Shown piece by piece: positions 24,134 through 32,165 of a stretch of 64,000 nt of DNA; positions within the stretch are counted from its first letter, which is position 1; the number at the start of each line of letters is the position of its first letter. The position numbers and the translations under genes were made by a program. Below the pieces are notes generated by a model. That model did no database searches. It saw only the letters and a program-made list of their open reading frames with translations, and had not been told where the DNA came from. The DNA is from Macrolepiota albuminosa (Eukaryota; Basidiomycota; Agaricomycetes; Agaricales; Agaricaceae). The stretch is from positions 62,001 through 126,000 of the forward strand of contig JAMWFC010000009.1 of NCBI GenBank assembly GCA_027475525.1. Direction: 5' to 3'.

Positions 24134-24166
24134 CATGCCTACGGTTGTCGTCCAGGGTCAGGACTG
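24134..24166 (+). repeat. Left arm of a 6-kb-spaced inverted repeat
   Basis: Matches the reverse complement of 30180-30210 at all positions except one mismatch and one 2-nt indel over 33/31 nt (core ggttgtcg.cagggtcagga). Weaker similarity continues on both sides. It brackets the alpha-kinase and DDE genes. Confidence 0.75.
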
Positions 24167-24318
24167 GCTCTAGAGCGGCAACTGTCAAAGCTGTCGCAAC
24201 CAAGTGATGGGGTCCTTGATACTAGTTACAGGTCACAAATAGCAATTGAATAAAGCTCTTTGACACTAGTCACACGTTGCAAATAGTAATTAAATAATGC
24301 ATGTGGTCGTAGATGCTA

Positions 24319-26892
24319 CTATTTCAACATATCTTGCGCCACTTCATCATTTAAGATAGAAGTTACATCCATTCGGCGGTCAAGGCGACTTGCCTTTGCA
24401 TCAGGAGATTTTGTAGATAGTGGTTCTATTATGAGGTTGTGTAATCCAAGTCGTTTGCATACCCAGTTGTTTTTGCAGACATCATAATGCTCACGCATTA
24501 TTTTCGTGAATGACCGGGAACCCTGATCCCAATAATAATCAGGTTTTGGAGTGTTTCTGTTGAATATAATCTATGAGATGGTTTGTATTGATTCAGAGAA
24601 CTGTAAGGTTTACGTATGAGCCTGTGGATCAAAAAGACACAATACTCCCTTTGAATCAAGGGTACCTTGGTTTTATGTCAGTTGGTTGTGTCAATCTATA
24701 CTTGAAAAGAAACAATTACCTTGTAAGTCACAAAACAAGATACTGTCCTGAGAGTAGGCAACAGAAAAATGAACAAATGCATGGATAGCCTTTGTCATAT
24801 CATCTGATGCATCACCAAAGTTTTCATTTCCAGTGTATTTACGAACTTTGGGGTCTACAAGACCACAGGGAAGAAGTGGTGTTGCAATGAAATCTTGAAA
24901 AGGAACAGGGGTACTGCCAGAAGAAGTCGAGGAATGCTGAAGTATTCCAAGTATTGAGTCAGGAAAGTTGAAGTAGAACTCTAATAAAGAATGTAATGTC
25001 AGTACATAGTTACATCCATTAATATTGAACTTACTGGGAACTGTTTTCAACCCTTGAGCTACAGCATGTTCATCAAATTTCCCTTTAAACCAATGACATA
25101 AAGCCAATAGTTCATATTCTCCAGTCAGATTCTTTTTCACTTCGTCGCATGTGGTTTGCTCATCAAAATTTTGGGTCAGAATAAACTCTCGATTATTAAA
25201 TCGAGCCTACAAGGTTACAATAGATCAGCAAACTTGATAAATTTTGCTTGTAATCTAAAAACACTTACATAGATGGCACGTTTGGTAAAACCACGACCAA
25301 TATAACCAGTGTGGCTATAAGACTTGTTCTCCTTTGATGCAACTTCACCATCAATCCAATCAGTAGCAATTTCGATTACTTCCTCTTCCTTTGATACTGT
25401 TAGAATAACTTCGCCATCATCAAGAACAGTAGCAGTAGATCTGATGAAGATATATTTCTGCATAGGTGGATTTCGAGTCCATTGTAAAGCTGATGGAGAA
25501 GGTGGTGGTGGCATTGCTGAGTTCCGAGGTCTAAATGCACTTTTAAGCACAACTGGAGGAGGAGGCATCTGCTTATTAGACTTGTCATTGGAAGCAGTAG
25601 AACCAAGAACAGATGACTTTTTAGAGCTTGATGCAGGTATCAATGAAGTAGTATCAGCTCGTGCACGTTTGAGGCTCTTCTTTGAACTCTGAATAGAGCT
25701 GAAATATGAATTCTGAGATTTGCATTTATTTGAATACTGAATATTGAAAATCAGTTAAGAACTTACTGGATAATTTGCATTCAATTCAGATGGAATGATC
25801 ACAATACGAATCTTGACAATAGAAGCTTTGATATTTGATTCTGTAGTAAGCTTCTGTTGGCGGAACTCCTCGAACATTTCATAAAGAGGCTTGTTGCGGT
25901 CAAAATGACTTAGTGAGGCATAGTCATTGCTAGCACCGCTACAATCAGCCAAAAGTTGAATGTTTGCCCTGACTGTTTGTTAAAAAGTATCTTAATATTT
26001 GCTTTATAGATATACATACCATGTCAGCTCCTCAGCTTCAGCATTAGACTTCTGATAGTCATCCTTTGCTTGCTGAAGTAGTTCATCTAGACATGCTTTT
26101 GTTTCTTTCATCTTGTCAAAGGTTCGACGAACATGTACACCTGGCCGCACCTATAATCAATTTTTTGTTATTTTCTGACATTCTGCAGAAAATAAGCTAC
26201 AAACTTACTTCAATGAGTTTTGATTTTTTATCATATTGCCATAGTGCCGCAATCATAGTAATACCTTTGTTCTCTTCCCGAAGCTTGGCCTCAGCCTTCT
26301 TCTGCTGCCGTTCAAGATTGACTTGCTGAGCTCGTGAAAGATTATTGAATTTATTACTCGAACTTGTTGTTTGAACTGTTCGAGGTCGTCCTGCATGAAG
26401 CCTTGTATCAGAGGCTTGAGTACGATGGGTTCCAGCAAGAGATATAATATCTGAAACTAAGGCTGATGCTTGAGAACTTGTGGCTTCACCATCACCTTCA
26501 GAATTCAATGACGTTGTGTCCTGAGTCAACAAAGTTGCTACACCAGGAAGAATAATGATTTCACGTGGAACATGAGATTGCTCGCCTGTTAGATTCTCAA
26601 TTTTCATTATAGCTGTATAGTTACAAGATAACTCACGGTAGAAGTCAACACAGCTGGTACAAATTCTGGCAGAGATTCCATTGTAAAGTAGACCACAGCC
26701 AGCACATTGAGGCTTATCCTAGATAATGAAAGTTAATCAAAGACTTGAAATAATAAAAACACAAAAGTTATTAGTACATTTATAGCCCGCAATTCAGGTA
26801 CAGAAAGACCTGGTTTGCGAGACTGGCATCTAGAGCAAATATCACTGTCTAGACGTGGAAAGATAAACAAGCAGATTTTGCATGCAGTCATC
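24319..26892 (-). CDS. Alpha-type protein kinase with N-terminal zinc-ribbon-like cysteines
   Basis: Predicted Ser/Thr kinase of the atypical alpha-kinase (MHCK/EF2K) family. I traced nine exons on minus with GT-AG introns of about 45-60 nt, giving roughly 700 aa from ATG 26892 to TAG 24321-24319. The first 70 residues hold CKIC, CSRC, CAGC and CTSC pairs, a double zinc-ribbon-like head. The middle is basic and low-complexity with a PPPP run. The C-terminal kinase part has GRGFTKRAIYA, LVDPKVRKYTGN, ILFCDLQG and LFDPQAHT, the order expected of alpha-kinases, then a Trp/Cys-containing tail (NWVCKRLGL). Exon 1 is 26892-26778 and exon 2 is 26718-26209. No stop or frameshift was met. It lies 3' of the DDE gene on the same strand, 244 nt apart. 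Substrate unknown; this family is strongly expanded in mushrooms. Confidence 0.85.
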
Positions 26893-26976
26893 TAAGCAAA
26901 GGAGGTAGGTCACCGTTAAACTGCTTGAGTGCTGTACTGTCCTTTATATTGTAGCAAAAAGTAACAGATCAATTAA

Positions 26977-27128
26977 AACAGTAACACAATAAGATGTAGT
27001 ATCAAAAGTCTAGCTGCGGTCCATATACATAGTAAGAATCAATGAACATGAGAACAGTAACACAATAAGATGTAGTACCAAAAGTCTAGCTGCGGTCCAT
27101 ATACATAGTAAGAATCAATGAACATGAG
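26977..27128 (+). repeat. 76-bp tandem duplication between the two genes
   Basis: Two 76-bp units (26977-27052, 27053-27128) differing at one base (tatc/tacc), in the short space between the DDE gene stop (27136) and the kinase start (26892). The duplication could affect the kinase promoter. Confidence 0.9.
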
Positions 27129-27135
27129 GAAAAAC

Positions 27136-28679
27136 TCATGGAAATACAAGTGGATAGAGTTCCTTAAAGACATGCCACACGTTGTCAAACGTTAGGTCCT
27201 GGACTTGTAACGACTCATAAGCCACCTCTGCACGTTCTGCAAATTCTAGAGTTGAAAATGAAAGAAGCTGGTCTCCGCCCATCTCCTTTTTAATTTCCCG
27301 GATAACATCAAGATCCACTGGAAGAAGACAGTCTTTACCACCCCAACGCTCTGGAAACTTGAATGCTGTGTTACGTGACATTCCAGATGGACCAGGCTTG
27401 CTGGTGTTTTTACGTGACTTGAATGCATTCTTCTCTTTCATAAATTGCTTAAGGACCTTTCGTATGAGCTTAGCCCAGAGCCATTGGCATAATTCTCTAC
27501 AATTGATAATAGGTCATTAGTATATGATAAGTTGAATCAAACTTACTGATGATTCTCATCATCCTCATCATACCATCCCTCAATCTTACCCCTTTCGAAT
27601 ACCTCAATAGCATTCTTTCCCCAATCTATCTGTAAATGTCTCCATGAACGTTCAATAACAATGTTATGAACACTTCGAAGATAGATATGGGCAGGAAGTT
27701 CATTCAATTGAACATCAGAATGAAAGATTTCCCTACCATAGATATAGTTAGTGTTTTTCATATTACAAAATTTACTTACCGTAAAGCATTCTGAAGCCCA
27801 TACAGAAGTGTAGTTTCTGAACCACAGTCTGTACACAGTTGAAGTGGAATACCTAATTGAAAAAATTAATACAGTTCAATAGACAAGAAAACAGACTTAC
27901 CACCATGTTCCTCAACACAACAAAGAAACAAATATCCGACAATGATATTGTAGCGGTTGCTTGGAGCAATATCAGCATATAGCCATGTTCCAGTAGCTTC
28001 ATCGACAAAGCCATAAAGAGGAAAGCCAATCTTGTAAAGTTTGTCATGGCCATCGCATGACCATCTTTCATGAATTCCTAATGGTACTTTAGAATGGCGA
28101 AGAATCTTCCGTGCAGTAGGATTGCGTTGTTTAAAGCCTTCAGAATCATGAGTCTTCATAGTTTCACGTACAAAATCCCGTGGTAAATGTTCACTCTTGC
28201 GAGATGCAATGCGCTGACGAATTGTGCGAGGTCCAGCACGTTTAGCGGGATCAAGATCAAGCTGCTCCAGAACAAGCTGTTCTGCTTCTTGGCGGCCTTT
28301 GTTCTTGAGATTTTTTCCGCCACCTACAAAGCCATTGTAGCTGCGAGCACGTTTGATAGAACTTGCACTAAAAATGATCATTATTCATCAGCTCATATAA
28401 TGACCTAGTATGAAGCTGTAGACTTTACCTCAATTGAAAGCCATGATCACGGGCAAGATGTTGAGCAATCTCTTCATTAGAGTCCATAAGTTGCTCATGG
28501 TACTCCTTCAATGCCGCAACCAGACGTGGATCATCTTTTTTAACTACATAACATTATAAGAAAAATATAAACAAGCATGAATCACAGAATTGACCTTTAG
28601 TACCATGTTGATTGTTGCCAGTTGGATTGCGATTGTATGAATTGGACATGGCTGAAGATAATACTGAGGAACAACTCAT
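27136..28679 (-). CDS. DDE integrase-core transposase-like protein
   Basis: Six or so exons on minus, from ATG 28679 (or an in-frame ATG 30 nt later) to TGA 27138-27136, about 440 aa with no stop met. The catalytic-core signature is present: WSCDGHDKL (first Asp), CTDCGSETT (second Asp) and HNIVIERSWRHL (Glu), giving a DDE-type triad. Downstream LCQWLWAKLIRK and DLTFDNVWHVF are typical of the integrase-core-domain proteins common in Agaricomycetes. Introns are GT-AG: AAAG/gtcaat in the N-terminal part, then after CCVEEHGG, after LQNALR and after ENHQ. Intact catalytic residues suggest a recently active or conserved protein. Together with the kinase it sits inside an inverted-repeat-bounded unit, which suggests it may move that unit. 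Confidence 0.8.
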
Positions 28680-28879
28680 TGTCCTGACTTTTTAAAAGTC
28701 TTTCATTGACGGCAATACTCATACTTTTTGGAGCATGTAAGATTAACCTCAACCATGCATCAAAAGCATGTTCAATTTAGTATGACTCTCAAACATATTG
28801 AAAAAGCTACACAGTGCGTGTTGAAAAGACTTGAGGCTTTCTAGTTGTATCTAGACTTGTATGAATTTAAGTTAATGCA

Positions 28880-30060
28880 TACCTTGAAACGTGTTTTGAC
28901 TAGTTGGAGGCTAGTATTAGTATGTAGTAATAGCAATTAGTATTTGTTAGCACTTACTTTAAAACATGCTCCTGCTTGTCCATGAGGCCAGTAATAGTAG
29001 TAGTCAATCTTCATTAGACTTACTAGTAACTGCTTCAACTTTTACTAAATAATGTGTTTCTATCTACGGATCTGGTTTGCATGCATGTTTGATGATGTTG
29101 GCCCATGATACACATGAGGCGTGAAAAGACATGTCCACTAAATCGCGTTAAGCACTGACGCAAACATGAAGACTTGCTTTGATCTTCCCCTTCAAACAAA
29201 ACAGTATAAGTTAATACATTACTTTGAAACATGTTTCAATGAACCTTAGAAGTGTATCTGTAGCCTTAAGTCATGATGGTTAGTGTCCGAACTACATGAA
29301 TCTGAGGAATCATACTTATATTGATCATAAGTTCTGTGCTCGGAAATAATAGTCAATATTTGTTACATTGACTAGTAAACCTTGAAGCATATCTGTTCAT
29401 ATTAGTGACTTAGTAGTGGCTACTAACATTTCGTATCTGTAGCCTTGAGTCATGATGGTTAGTGTCCGAACTATATGGATCTGAAGCACAATGACGCAAA
29501 CATGAGGACTTGCTTTGATCTTCCCCTTCAAACAAAAAAGTCCAGTTAATACATTACTTTGAAACATGTTTCAATGAACCTTGGAAGTATATCTGTAGCC
29601 TTAAGTCATGATGGTTAGTGTCCGAACTACATGAATCTGAGGAATCATACTTATATGACTACTAACATTTCATATCTGTAGCCTTGAGTCATGGATGGTT
29701 AGTGTCCGAACTATATGAATCTGAAGGTCAGCACCTACTTTAAAACATGCTTCAACTTTGTTATCATGTTGAAGCAATAGTTATCATACTAGTGACTTGG
29801 TAACTACTCTAACGTTTACTAGATAATGTATTTCAGCACCTACTTTAAAACATGCTTCAACTTTGTTATCATGTTGAAGCAATAGTTATCATACTAGTGA
29901 CTTAGTAACTACTCTAACGTTTACTAGATAATGTATTTCTATCTACGAGTCTGGTTTGCATGCATATTTGGTCATGTTAGTCCTTGATACACGCGAGGCG
30001 TGAAAAGGCATGTCCACTAAATCGCGTTGCCCACTAAACTTCCTATGATTTATTTAGTTC
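28880..30060. repeat. Shuffled internal repeats upstream of the DDE gene
   Basis: At least four modules recur. Module ctgtagcctt-agtcatgatggttagtgtccgaacta appears at about 29259, 29428, 29590 and 29672. A 103-bp unit is tandem at 29733-29940. Module tctggtttgcatgcat...aaatcgcgtt occurs at about 29060 and 29948. Module acgcaaacatga-gacttgctttgatcttcccc occurs at 29157 and 29491. There is no coding sequence. The repeats lie between the DDE gene start and the right inverted-repeat arm, a place where many DNA transposons carry subterminal repeats. Confidence 0.8.
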
Positions 30061-30179
30061 TTGCCGCAACGTCGCCAGTAAGTAATTATATTATGATAGT
30101 AACTATAACAGTAACGGGGTGCCAGACACCCCAGTCACCTTTCAAAACAGGTGATCCGCTTGTCCATCAATGCTTCTCG

Positions 30180-30210
30180 CAGTCCTGACCCTGCACGACA
30201 ACCGTACATG
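30180..30210 (-). repeat. Right arm of the inverted repeat
   Basis: Partner of 24134-24166 on the opposite strand (one mismatch, one 2-nt indel). Beyond it, 30211-30837 holds nothing recognisable. Confidence 0.75.
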
Positions 30211-30837
30211 CCATGGATGCCGTTCCGAGTAGTAAGGATTTACCATTGATCATTTGTGTCACTTTACCTCTAAGTCATGTGTTTGCAACGCTTAAAAGTG
30301 TACTAGTCTTGAGATTCAACTTTTGGACTATTTTCTTCACGAGTAGGCAACGTCATTTCTCGGGGACTATGAGTGCGTGATCTATCGAGGGCTCCCACAA
30401 CAGTTCAATTTCTCAAGACTTCAGAAGTTACAGATCGAGGTCGAATTGTGTCTGCAACTTGAGTCACATCGGGGCGAGAGTCTTGTGACGGGAGTTAAAA
30501 GATATTCACGTATCGTTTAGTCCTCGGTCAGGACCGGTGTCCCTTTCAACTCCGATCATTTCGCAAACAAGTAGTGTGGCGCATTGCTATGTACATATTA
30601 CGCATCCTGATCCAGATTCACTTGCACAAAAAAGTTATATGCCGTAGTAAAGGAGGGCATACAGACAGCAATTCAACGTCCATCCAAGAATTCGTTCTGT
30701 ACAGCCAAACCGTATAGATCTCAAGGGAAAACGAAACAGAATGAGCGCTGAATATTTGGACTAAACCGCTGAAACATGGGATTTGCTTGTAGAATTTTCG
30801 TTGCATCAGAAGAAAAGCGGTGGTGACGGGTGATTAC

Positions 30838-32165
30838 TTACAATTGGCTGAACCGTCCGTCGTGTTCATTATTCAAAAAGGCGTCATAGAACAGAGCACC
30901 GAACTGGGCGCCCAAGAACGGAGCAATGATAGGACACCAGATCCAATATTGGCTAGTCGACGATCAGATCACGCGCTCTGGAATTATCAACCAAGTGATA
31001 CTGACTGACGGAATGTATAGACAGCCTTCCCATAACCGACCATGGAAGTTAATAGACGGGGACCAAGATCACGAGCGGGGTTCAATGCAAAGCCTAATAG
31101 CGTTCTCTTGAACACCACGTAAAGATATACAAGTACGGAGGGCTTACTAGTATTCATACCAAGGCTGGCAGCGATCCCAATAAAGGTGATGAATAACGCC
31201 AGGGGGAGCAAGCCGGCAGGCGCAGGGGAGTTGCCACGATCTGTGGCGGCGAGTAGGACAAAGACCAATATTGCAGTCGCAAGGAACTCAGAAAAAAAAG
31301 CTGATACATCAGTCATGTAGTCCGCCTAAATCCATAAAATGAATTTAAATCAACTGAGTAGAAGCCATATAACGCTGACCGCAAAAGTGGAGAATATGCC
31401 AGCGGTTTTGAGCGTTCGGATACCCCTTCCGCCTTCAAAGACGTCAATTGCGTGGAAATAGTTAGCATAGATAATTGCAGCGCCGACAAGAGCTCCCATC
31501 AACTGGGCTAGGATGTAAACTTGAATGAAGCAAATGAGACAGGTCGCGAATATTTTGTAGCTCAACACCAGACGACTGACCTGGTACTTTCTTCCAGGGA
31601 AATTTGCGCCAGGTTGCCATTGCCAATGTGACCTATCATTTTTAAGTGAGAATACGACCACTGGAATGAGAGTAGAGCATACTGCAGGGTTGATGTGGCC
31701 ACCAGAGATGCCACCACTAACCCATGCGCCCAATGCGATAGCTAGAGATGCCATTATACTAAGGACACATTTCCTGTGGCTAACATCTTACCTGCGCCCC
31801 ATCCCAACGTCACGGTCGCCCAGTCCTAGTGAATAGTCAGCTCAGTTATCAAGAACTGAACACTAAAGATATTGAGAACGTACACCCTTTAGAGAAGAAG
31901 ATACATCGGTGTTGCTCGACAGAACGGCTTGACAGTTGACCCCGAGGCCAAAGATGGTGAGAAGCATGGTTCCAGCGAATTCAGCAGCAGGTTCCCGAAG
32001 CATTTGCCTGTGTCATGGTCAGGAAATGCGCGCAGAGTTTGAGGGTGTGCCGACGCACTTGTATGGCCACCACCAGTTCTCTGGGACGGCGGTCAAAAGC
32101 GGTCCTTGATCACGTTCATCGTGAGGTTGAGATATGGTCGAGCTATACGACTTGGACCGAGACAT
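30838..32165 (-). CDS. Aquaglyceroporin (major intrinsic protein)
   Basis: Membrane channel for water, glycerol and similar small solutes. Nine exons sum to 885 nt (294 aa): 32165-32059, 32007-31884, 31825-31792, 31741-31683, 31632-31581, 31519-31380, 31325-31160, 31093-31006 and 30952-30838, with stop TAA 30840-30838. Every junction is GT-AG and keeps frame. It has the two pore motifs GHINPA (interrupted right after the codon for Ala by an intron) and [10 protein letters not shown]. The Asp after NPAR is usual in aquaglyceroporins. [27 protein letters not shown] and [15 protein letters not shown] are typical fungal segments. The start MSRSKSY was chosen because it is in frame upstream of NWWWPYKQMLREP. 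The gene is divergent from the bHLH gene. Confidence 0.93.

What the first reader, a model, noticed from the sequence alone, without database searches (positions are those of the whole stretch)
24134..30210. Inverted-repeat-bounded unit carrying a DDE integrase-like gene and an alpha-kinase
Two apparently intact multi-exon genes on one strand (DDE transposase-like 27136-28679, alpha-kinase 24319-26892) are bracketed by a 31-33 nt inverted repeat with one mismatch and one 2-nt indel, 6.0 kb apart. Shuffled internal repeats lie near the right end. The unit sits next to 6 kb of decayed repeats yet its genes are not decayed. Inference: a DNA transposon (or domesticated unit) that carries a protein kinase as cargo. 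Both families are strongly expanded in mushrooms, and co-mobilisation would be one explanation.
Basis: partly seen in the sequence, partly recalled or inferred. Interest (0 to 1): 0.85.

Follow-up and report, generated by a model that had tools for sequence, protein, structure and literature searches.

The report
Mobile transposon carrying a protein kinase
This piece of a mushroom-type fungal genome is a recently mobile DNA transposon that carries, beside its transposase, an unusual protein kinase gene kept under selection during its evolution, so many kinase genes of this type in this genome belong to jumping DNA.

Summary
Confirmed and sharpened. Window 24140-30206 is a complete 6067-bp DNA transposon: TIRs TACGGTTGTCGT..., target duplication CATGCC on both sides. 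A copy on contig C92 differs at 2 of 6067 bases and has its own duplication (GTGGAG) in unrelated flanks; contig C72 holds the empty site inside a 98.98% identical 2064-bp alignment. It encodes an integrase-fold DDE transposase (rva_4; 431 aa) and, on the same strand, a 707-aa alpha-kinase.

Termini, duplication length and transposase place it in the IS3EU superfamily. Kojima 2025 reported rust IS3EU elements with an alpha-kinase (plus TET/JBP, opposite orientation), so kinase cargo is not new. Here: mushroom lineage, same orientation, no third gene recognised; five distinct TIR- and TSD-bounded insertions span both genes; 16 of 23 kinase places in the genome lie within 5 kb of a transposase; both genes are under purifying selection between subfamilies; kinase and transposase distances correlate over 11 pairs, less clearly among close copies. 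Eight of 21 related kinases, in seven named species or isolates, sit with a transposase. The aligned kinases lack the usual ATP-site lysine (0 of 19). The kinase's role is inferred.

The parts
24134..24139 (.). left target-site duplication CATGCC
   Evidence: present once in the C72 empty site
24140..24166 (+). left terminal inverted repeat TACGGTTGTCGTCCAGGGTCAGGACTG
24319..26891 (-). alpha-kinase gene, 9 exons (26778-26891, 26209-26718, 26020-26150, 25767-25968, 25269-25712, 25035-25206, 24720-24980, 24614-24665, 24319-24556), 707 aa; CxxC-rich N-terminus, ubiquitin-like domain, alpha-kinase domain
   Evidence: folds from the homologue P0002
26972..27123 (.). 76-nt direct tandem duplication between the two genes
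   Evidence: D6
27136..28679 (-). DDE transposase gene (rva_4), 6 exons (28586-28679, 28429-28543, 27901-28367, 27780-27852, 27547-27732, 27136-27496), 431 aa; motifs WSCDGHDKL, LCTDCGSETT, HNIVIERSW
   Evidence: fold from the homologue P0009
28938..30035. subterminal region with interspersed and tandem direct repeats (40-133 nt units); no frame of 80 aa or more listed between 28680 and 30206
   Evidence: (D1-D9)
30111..30155 (+). right-end motif: hairpin GGGGTGCCAGACACCCC followed by a second hairpin, 96 nt from the element end; 85-126 nt from an element end in 9 of 12 occurrences in the fetched loci, no end recognised in 3
30180..30206 (-). right terminal inverted repeat
30207..30212 (.). 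right target-site duplication CATGCC

Best explanation
Window 24140-30206 is a young, structurally complete cut-and-paste DNA transposon of the IS3EU superfamily, probably autonomous. Its integrase-fold DDE transposase acts on the TACGG...CCGTA ends and inserts the element with a 5-6 bp staggered cut (chemistry inferred from family and fold). The second gene, an alpha-kinase with a cysteine-pair N-terminus and a ubiquitin-like domain, is a heritable part of the transposon and not a passing passenger (supported by shared boundaries, correlated divergence and purifying selection). Its most likely role is an accessory factor that acts on the transposase or on host chromatin or repair proteins to favour transposition or escape silencing (inferred, about 0.55); a strict need for it in transposition is less likely, because kinase-less relatives exist.
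Against: No transposition or expression was observed. 15 of 31 transposase places have no kinase within 8 kb; one of them, C30, is a TIR-bounded 2421-bp element with an otherwise full-length relative of the transposase. So the kinase is not needed by every relative. No kinase in the aligned set has lysine at the usual beta-3 position (0 of 19), so catalytic activity is uncertain. dS between subfamilies is high (1.2-2.7) and the projected codons of decayed copies cross some intron edges, so dN/dS is rough. Within the own genome the distance correlation rests on deep copies: r 0.85 with 8 copies (21 of 9999 permutations as high), but only 0.33 with the six closer ones (148 of 720). Part of the 11-pair correlation can reflect host relatedness. 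The C92 flank has no second allele in the assembly. C72 also holds a 90% identical paralogous stretch without the element, so calling C72 the allele rests on the 99% identity.
Confidence: 0.87

Rival explanations
1. The kinase is a passive passenger captured by one transposon lineage, with no role for the element.
For: Kinase-less transposase places exist; eukaryotic elements can pick up host genes (general knowledge); among six closer own-genome copies the distance correlation is not significant.
Against: The kinase stays with the transposase across deep subfamilies and seven other named species or isolates, with correlated distances, and is under purifying selection between subfamilies. A passenger under no selection should decay.
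Confidence: 0.1
2. The unit is a domesticated host gene pair that happens to retain old transposon ends.
For: Genes intact in the window.
Against: Near-identical second copy in different flanks, and an empty site: the unit moved recently.
Confidence: 0.01
3. The kinase is an immunity-like or addiction-like trait selected at host level, not for transposition.
For: Purifying selection alone does not tell the level of selection; unusual lysine-less kinase family.
Against: Insertion polymorphism and decayed copies fit element-level selection; nothing in the calls points to a host trait.
Confidence: 0.1
4. The protein is a pseudokinase scaffold: it keeps the fold but binds a partner, with no phosphotransfer. 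(This concerns the kinase's mode of action and can hold together with the main reading.)
For: 0 of 19 aligned kinases have lysine before the invariant glutamine; the Pfam match in the window protein covers only the C-lobe, though in P0002 it covers positions 3-180 of 185.
Against: The DxQ motif is present in 19 of 19, the DPQ aspartate in 18 of 19, and a nearby lysine (K463) in 16 of 16 that are aligned there; a relocated lysine is known in WNK kinases (recalled).
Confidence: 0.3

Closest known systems
IS3EU transposons of rust fungi with transposase, TET/JBP and alpha-kinase (Kojima 2025, PMC12730594; abstract, outline, passages and figure legends seen)
   Same: TIR ends TAYGG..CCRTA, 6-bp TSD, transposase plus alpha-kinase in one element
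   Different: Those elements carry a TET/JBP gene between the two genes, which lie in opposite orientations; here same orientation, no third gene recognised, mushroom lineage. The term alpha-kinase occurs twice in that text. In the own genome, C1:37480-43917 shows the opposite-orientation layout.
IS3EU/GingerRoot superfamily in general (Kojima 2023, PMC10045372; passages seen)
   Same: TA..TA termini, TSDs usually 6 bp, integrase-like DDE transposase without upstream HHCC motif
   Different: Kinase gene; 3 of 13 elements here have 5-bp TSDs
Alpha-kinases (MHCK-A, TRPM7, eEF2K, ALPK1)
   Different: Usual beta-3 lysine replaced, T in 14 of 19; N-terminal cysteine pairs and ubiquitin-like domain; carried by a transposon
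Other fungal transposons with TET/JBP accessory genes, such as Kyakuja and Zisupton (PMC12730594)
   Same: Eukaryotic DNA transposon carrying a regulatory enzyme that may counter silencing
   Different: Different transposase and different accessory enzyme

Membership tests
IS3EU superfamily | termini TA..TA; TAYGG..CCRTA in rust members | tested here: met
   window TACGG...CCGTA; definition
IS3EU superfamily | TSD usually 6 bp | tested here: met
   6 bp in the window and C92 copies; over the 13 elements, 6 bp in 10 and 5 bp in 3
IS3EU superfamily | integrase-type DDE transposase | tested here: met
IS3EU superfamily | no HHCC motif upstream of the catalytic core | tested here: met
   read directly in the translation: no CxxC before WSCDGHDKL; definition
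IS3EU superfamily | transposase groups with Repbase IS3EU transposases in a tree | not tested
   no Repbase sequences on hand
IS3EU with TET/JBP (rust type) | TET/JBP gene between transposase and kinase; the two in opposite orientation | tested here: not met
   same orientation, and only 244 bp between the two genes (26892-27135). PF12851 gave no hit in the genome, but the control rang nowhere
alpha-kinase family | PF02816 domain and fold | tested here: met
   (18 of 18 homologues of alignment A3 match at E up to 0.1)
alpha-kinase family | active-site aspartates and DxQ motif | tested here: met
   19 of 19, 19 of 19 and 18 of 19
alpha-kinase family | beta-3 ATP-binding lysine (position recalled from MHCK-A and TRPM7) | tested here: not met
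   0 of 19; based on sequence alignment, doubtful for P0139, and not on superposed coordinates
alpha-kinase family | phosphotransfer activity | not testable with these tools
   needs an assay

The most novel reading that the evidence does not exclude
An alpha-kinase is an ancient standard component of a basidiomycete IS3EU lineage, from rusts to mushrooms. It acts as a lysine-less accessory kinase that reprograms the transposase or the host's silencing or repair, and the alpha-kinase expansions of basidiomycete genomes are largely transposon genes and not signalling genes.
Probability: 0.35. Interest if true: 0.78.

Novelty: new variant of a known kind. Interest (0 to 1): 0.6.

Why it matters
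One paper states that the alpha-kinase family is highly expanded in rusts (PMC4469406, one passage). If most such genes sit in transposons, the counts measure mobile DNA and not host signalling. A transposon that has kept a protein kinase under selection raises a testable question: what does a cut-and-paste element need to phosphorylate? The window copy, a near-identical sister and an empty site in one assembly make a good experimental start.

Tried and rejected
Domesticated pair: rejected, because the unit has moved. Chance inverted repeat: rejected. Right end as an unrelated dispersed repeat: rejected, it is the end of this family. The first kinase model had one unspliced intron (725 aa; used); alignment to homologues corrected it to 707 aa. 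The C81 pair looked like a second recent transposition, but it is one identical stretch of 7998 bp present twice on the contig and is not counted as two insertions. C114a and C114b share the same TSD and mirror-image flanks and count as one insertion. No clean TSD for C1 (TCAAT/TCAGT). No TET/JBP match in the genome, control silent, so inconclusive. No second allele for the C92 flank. A within-genome distance test on six closer copies was not significant. Rows dropped: one search used 4 own-genome pairs (C122, C6, C90, C114b) and 7 from other species, leaving out P0003 and the other own copies; alignment A3 holds 18 of 21 kinases (P0003, P0007, P0137 left out); A4 holds 24 of 120 listed transposases; C87 was dropped after one search failed, because its transposase piece does not overlap that of C45. 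Both ends of C90, C45, C87, C46, C57 and C81 were not resolved, and further TIR pairs seen were not fetched; these are outside the TSD count. Literature: searches found one paper holding both alpha-kinase and IS3EU (PMC12730594); most subscription journals are not held.
Full report
What is there. The window lies in an unnamed assembly (G000:C122:62001-126000; 100.1 Mb, 129 contigs). The nearest named protein relatives are Arthromyces, Lyophyllum and Termitomyces, mushrooms of the Lyophyllaceae (recalled). A 27-nt inverted repeat with one mismatch bounds 24140-30206; none of 100 shuffles has a match at up to 3 mismatches. The flanking 6-mer CATGCC stands at both ends. Contig C72 carries the same flanks with one CATGCC and no insert: one 2064-bp alignment at 98.98% spans the joined site, and two further pieces on the left match at 99.5% (1023 bp) and 98.6% (483 bp), separated by other length differences. 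A paralogous stretch elsewhere on C72 also spans the join without insert, at 90%. On contig C92 a copy of 6067 bp differs at two bases (24149 and 25808), is flanked by GTGGAG on both sides, and shows no flank similarity to the window. So the unit is one mobile element that moved recently.

Family in this genome. With the TIR pattern and up to one mismatch, 36 forward and 35 reverse sites are found; the backward control gives 0 and 0. I read both ends of 14 elements. Thirteen have exact direct flank repeats, 10 of 6 bp and 3 of 5 bp (C6, C115, C30); two of the 13 (C114a, C114b) are duplicates of one insertion. The fourteenth, C1, has different TIRs and an imperfect repeat. Other TIR pairs were not fetched. 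Matches to both genes lie between the ends in six of the 13 places, five distinct insertions: C122, C92, C6 (7470 bp), C65 (20.9 kb) and C114 (11.4 and 20.3 kb). The long ones hold further sequence that I mostly did not read, and the C114a kinase is partial (237 of 707 residues matched). Elements of 842 and 871 bp (C106, C62) keep only a 3' piece of the kinase. A 1025-bp element with TSD AACGCA is present in C126 and absent from its 98.9% identical counterpart C30, a second presence/absence case.

Pairing. I grouped the matches by hand into 31 transposase places and 23 kinase places; one search scored 62 of 84 candidates, so these are lower bounds. Of the 23 kinase places, 16 lie within 5 kb of a transposase. 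Of the other 7, C62 and C106 lie inside TIR-bounded short elements, C46 and C114:4546368 lie next to a TIR end, C45:1922967 has a TIR end about 6.5 kb away, and C114:4593787 and C16:227029 show no link; no protein of the search sets matched the 6 kb fetched around C16. Of the 31 transposase places, 15 have no kinase within 8 kb. Duplicated stretches inflate both counts. The Pfam rva_4 model lists 35 other matches, at no place in common and none at a kinase place. It does not list the window gene, which it matches once spliced, so it misses intron-split genes. Still, integrase-type transposases without kinase are common here.

Other species. Searches returned 7 and 18 kinases, 21 distinct (only the candidates sharing most words were scored), and 149 transposases, 120 listed. 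Eight of the 21 kinases have a transposase on a contig of the same listed length in the same species, or are gene models fusing both: Arthromyces (P0001/P0009, adjacent tags; P0003 fused), Tephrocybe (P0129/P0044, adjacent tags), Termitomyces (P0141/P0093, adjacent tags), Amylocystis (P0006/P0017), Phlegmacium (P0128/P0051), Collybiopsis (P0134/P0032) and Tricholoma matsutake (P0007 fused). Equal contig length is indirect evidence. The other 13 could not be paired from the listing.

Selection and co-descent. Window copy against seven diverged copies: kinase dN/dS 0.18-0.27 and transposase 0.04-0.18 without a filter; 0.12-0.19 and 0.04-0.18 with a local identity filter, one transposase comparison saturated. 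Synonymous divergence is high and some projected codons cross intron edges, so these are rough. Among closely related copies both genes give 0.35-0.86, as expected of decaying copies. For 11 kinase-transposase pairs the distances correlate (Mantel r 0.80, p 0.0005), and both trees give the same order for C122, C6, C90, C114b and Arthromyces; deeper nodes are weakly supported and partly differ. Host relatedness could add to this. Within the own genome alone r is 0.85 for 8 copies (21 of 9999 permutations as high) and 0.83 for 7 (148 of 5040), but 0.33 for the six closer ones (148 of 720), so the signal comes from deep divergence. The simplest reading remains that the two genes descended together inside the element.

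How it works. Shown: boundaries, recent movement, joint presence. Supported: co-descent and selection on both genes. Inferred from family knowledge: the transposase cuts at the ends and joins with a 5-6 bp stagger. The right-end hairpin motif, 85-126 nt from an element end in 9 of 12 occurrences (DNA folding z-score -2.6, 2 of 200 shuffles as stable), and the repeat-rich right subterminal region may be protein-binding or promoter sequences. Inferred: the kinase acts in trans as an accessory factor. In favour of host-directed action: kinase-less relatives exist, the protein has possible interaction modules, and rust relatives carry a TET/JBP dioxygenase in the same element. Against firm claims: in 0 of 19 aligned kinases is the residue before the invariant glutamine a lysine (T in 14; P0139 doubtfully aligned), while the DxQ motif is kept in 19 of 19, the DPQ aspartate in 18 of 19 and K463 in 16 of 16 present there. 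A stand-alone alpha-kinase of the same genome (C16) reads CIKQ at what looks like that position (by eye; the piece used was not aligned there). So activity may be altered or lost.

Known or new. Kojima 2025 (PMC12730594; abstract, outline, passages and legends seen) describes rust IS3EU elements with 6-bp TSDs and TAYGG..CCRTA ends, and states that all TET-bearing IS3EU families hold a TET/JBP gene between transposase and alpha-kinase, the latter two in opposite orientation. That makes kinase-bearing IS3EU known. The present element differs in gene orientation, in lacking a recognised third gene, and in host lineage. The evidence of selection, co-descent and genome-wide pairing was not in the passages I saw. 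I therefore call it a new variant of a known kind.

Noticed in passing
C81:424800-432800 and C81:981200-989200 (L041, L042): Two stretches 100% identical over 7998 bp, about 556 kb apart on one contig: recent segmental duplication or assembly artefact.
   Followed up: partly
C114:3317365-3337659 and C114:3387880-3399258: Mirror-image duplicates of one kinase-bearing element with the same TSD CTTAAG, about 50 kb apart and of different lengths.
   Followed up: partly
C126:2120388-2121412 against C30: 1025-bp TIR element present in one of two 98.9% identical loci, itself inserted in a kinase-less relative of the window element.
   Followed up: yes
L043, C1:37480-43917: Related element with transposase and kinase in opposite orientations, as in the rust elements; imperfect 5-bp flank repeat.
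   Followed up: partly
C16:227029-227286 (L051) and C114:4593787-4594047: Stand-alone alpha-kinase genes; the C16 one reads CIKQ where transposon kinases have LTQ (by eye), so it may be a host kinase.
   Followed up: partly
window 30987-31787, minus strand: Aquaporin-like reading frames (recognised by eye, not tested) begin within 1 kb of the insertion.
   Followed up: no
proteins P0003 and P0007: Public gene models from Arthromyces matolae and Tricholoma matsutake fuse the transposase and the kinase into one protein, probably annotation errors at such elements.
   Followed up: partly
The window transposase and the Pfam rva_4 model list no place in common in this genome, so several deep lineages of integrase-type transposons coexist; the model search misses intron-split genes.
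   Followed up: no
C62:1132866-1133736: Short derivative with the same TSD sequence CATGCC as the window element, a possible target preference; only two cases.
   Followed up: no
C72:207390-210681 (L030): A 90% identical paralogous copy of the window's flanking region, also without the element.
   Followed up: partly
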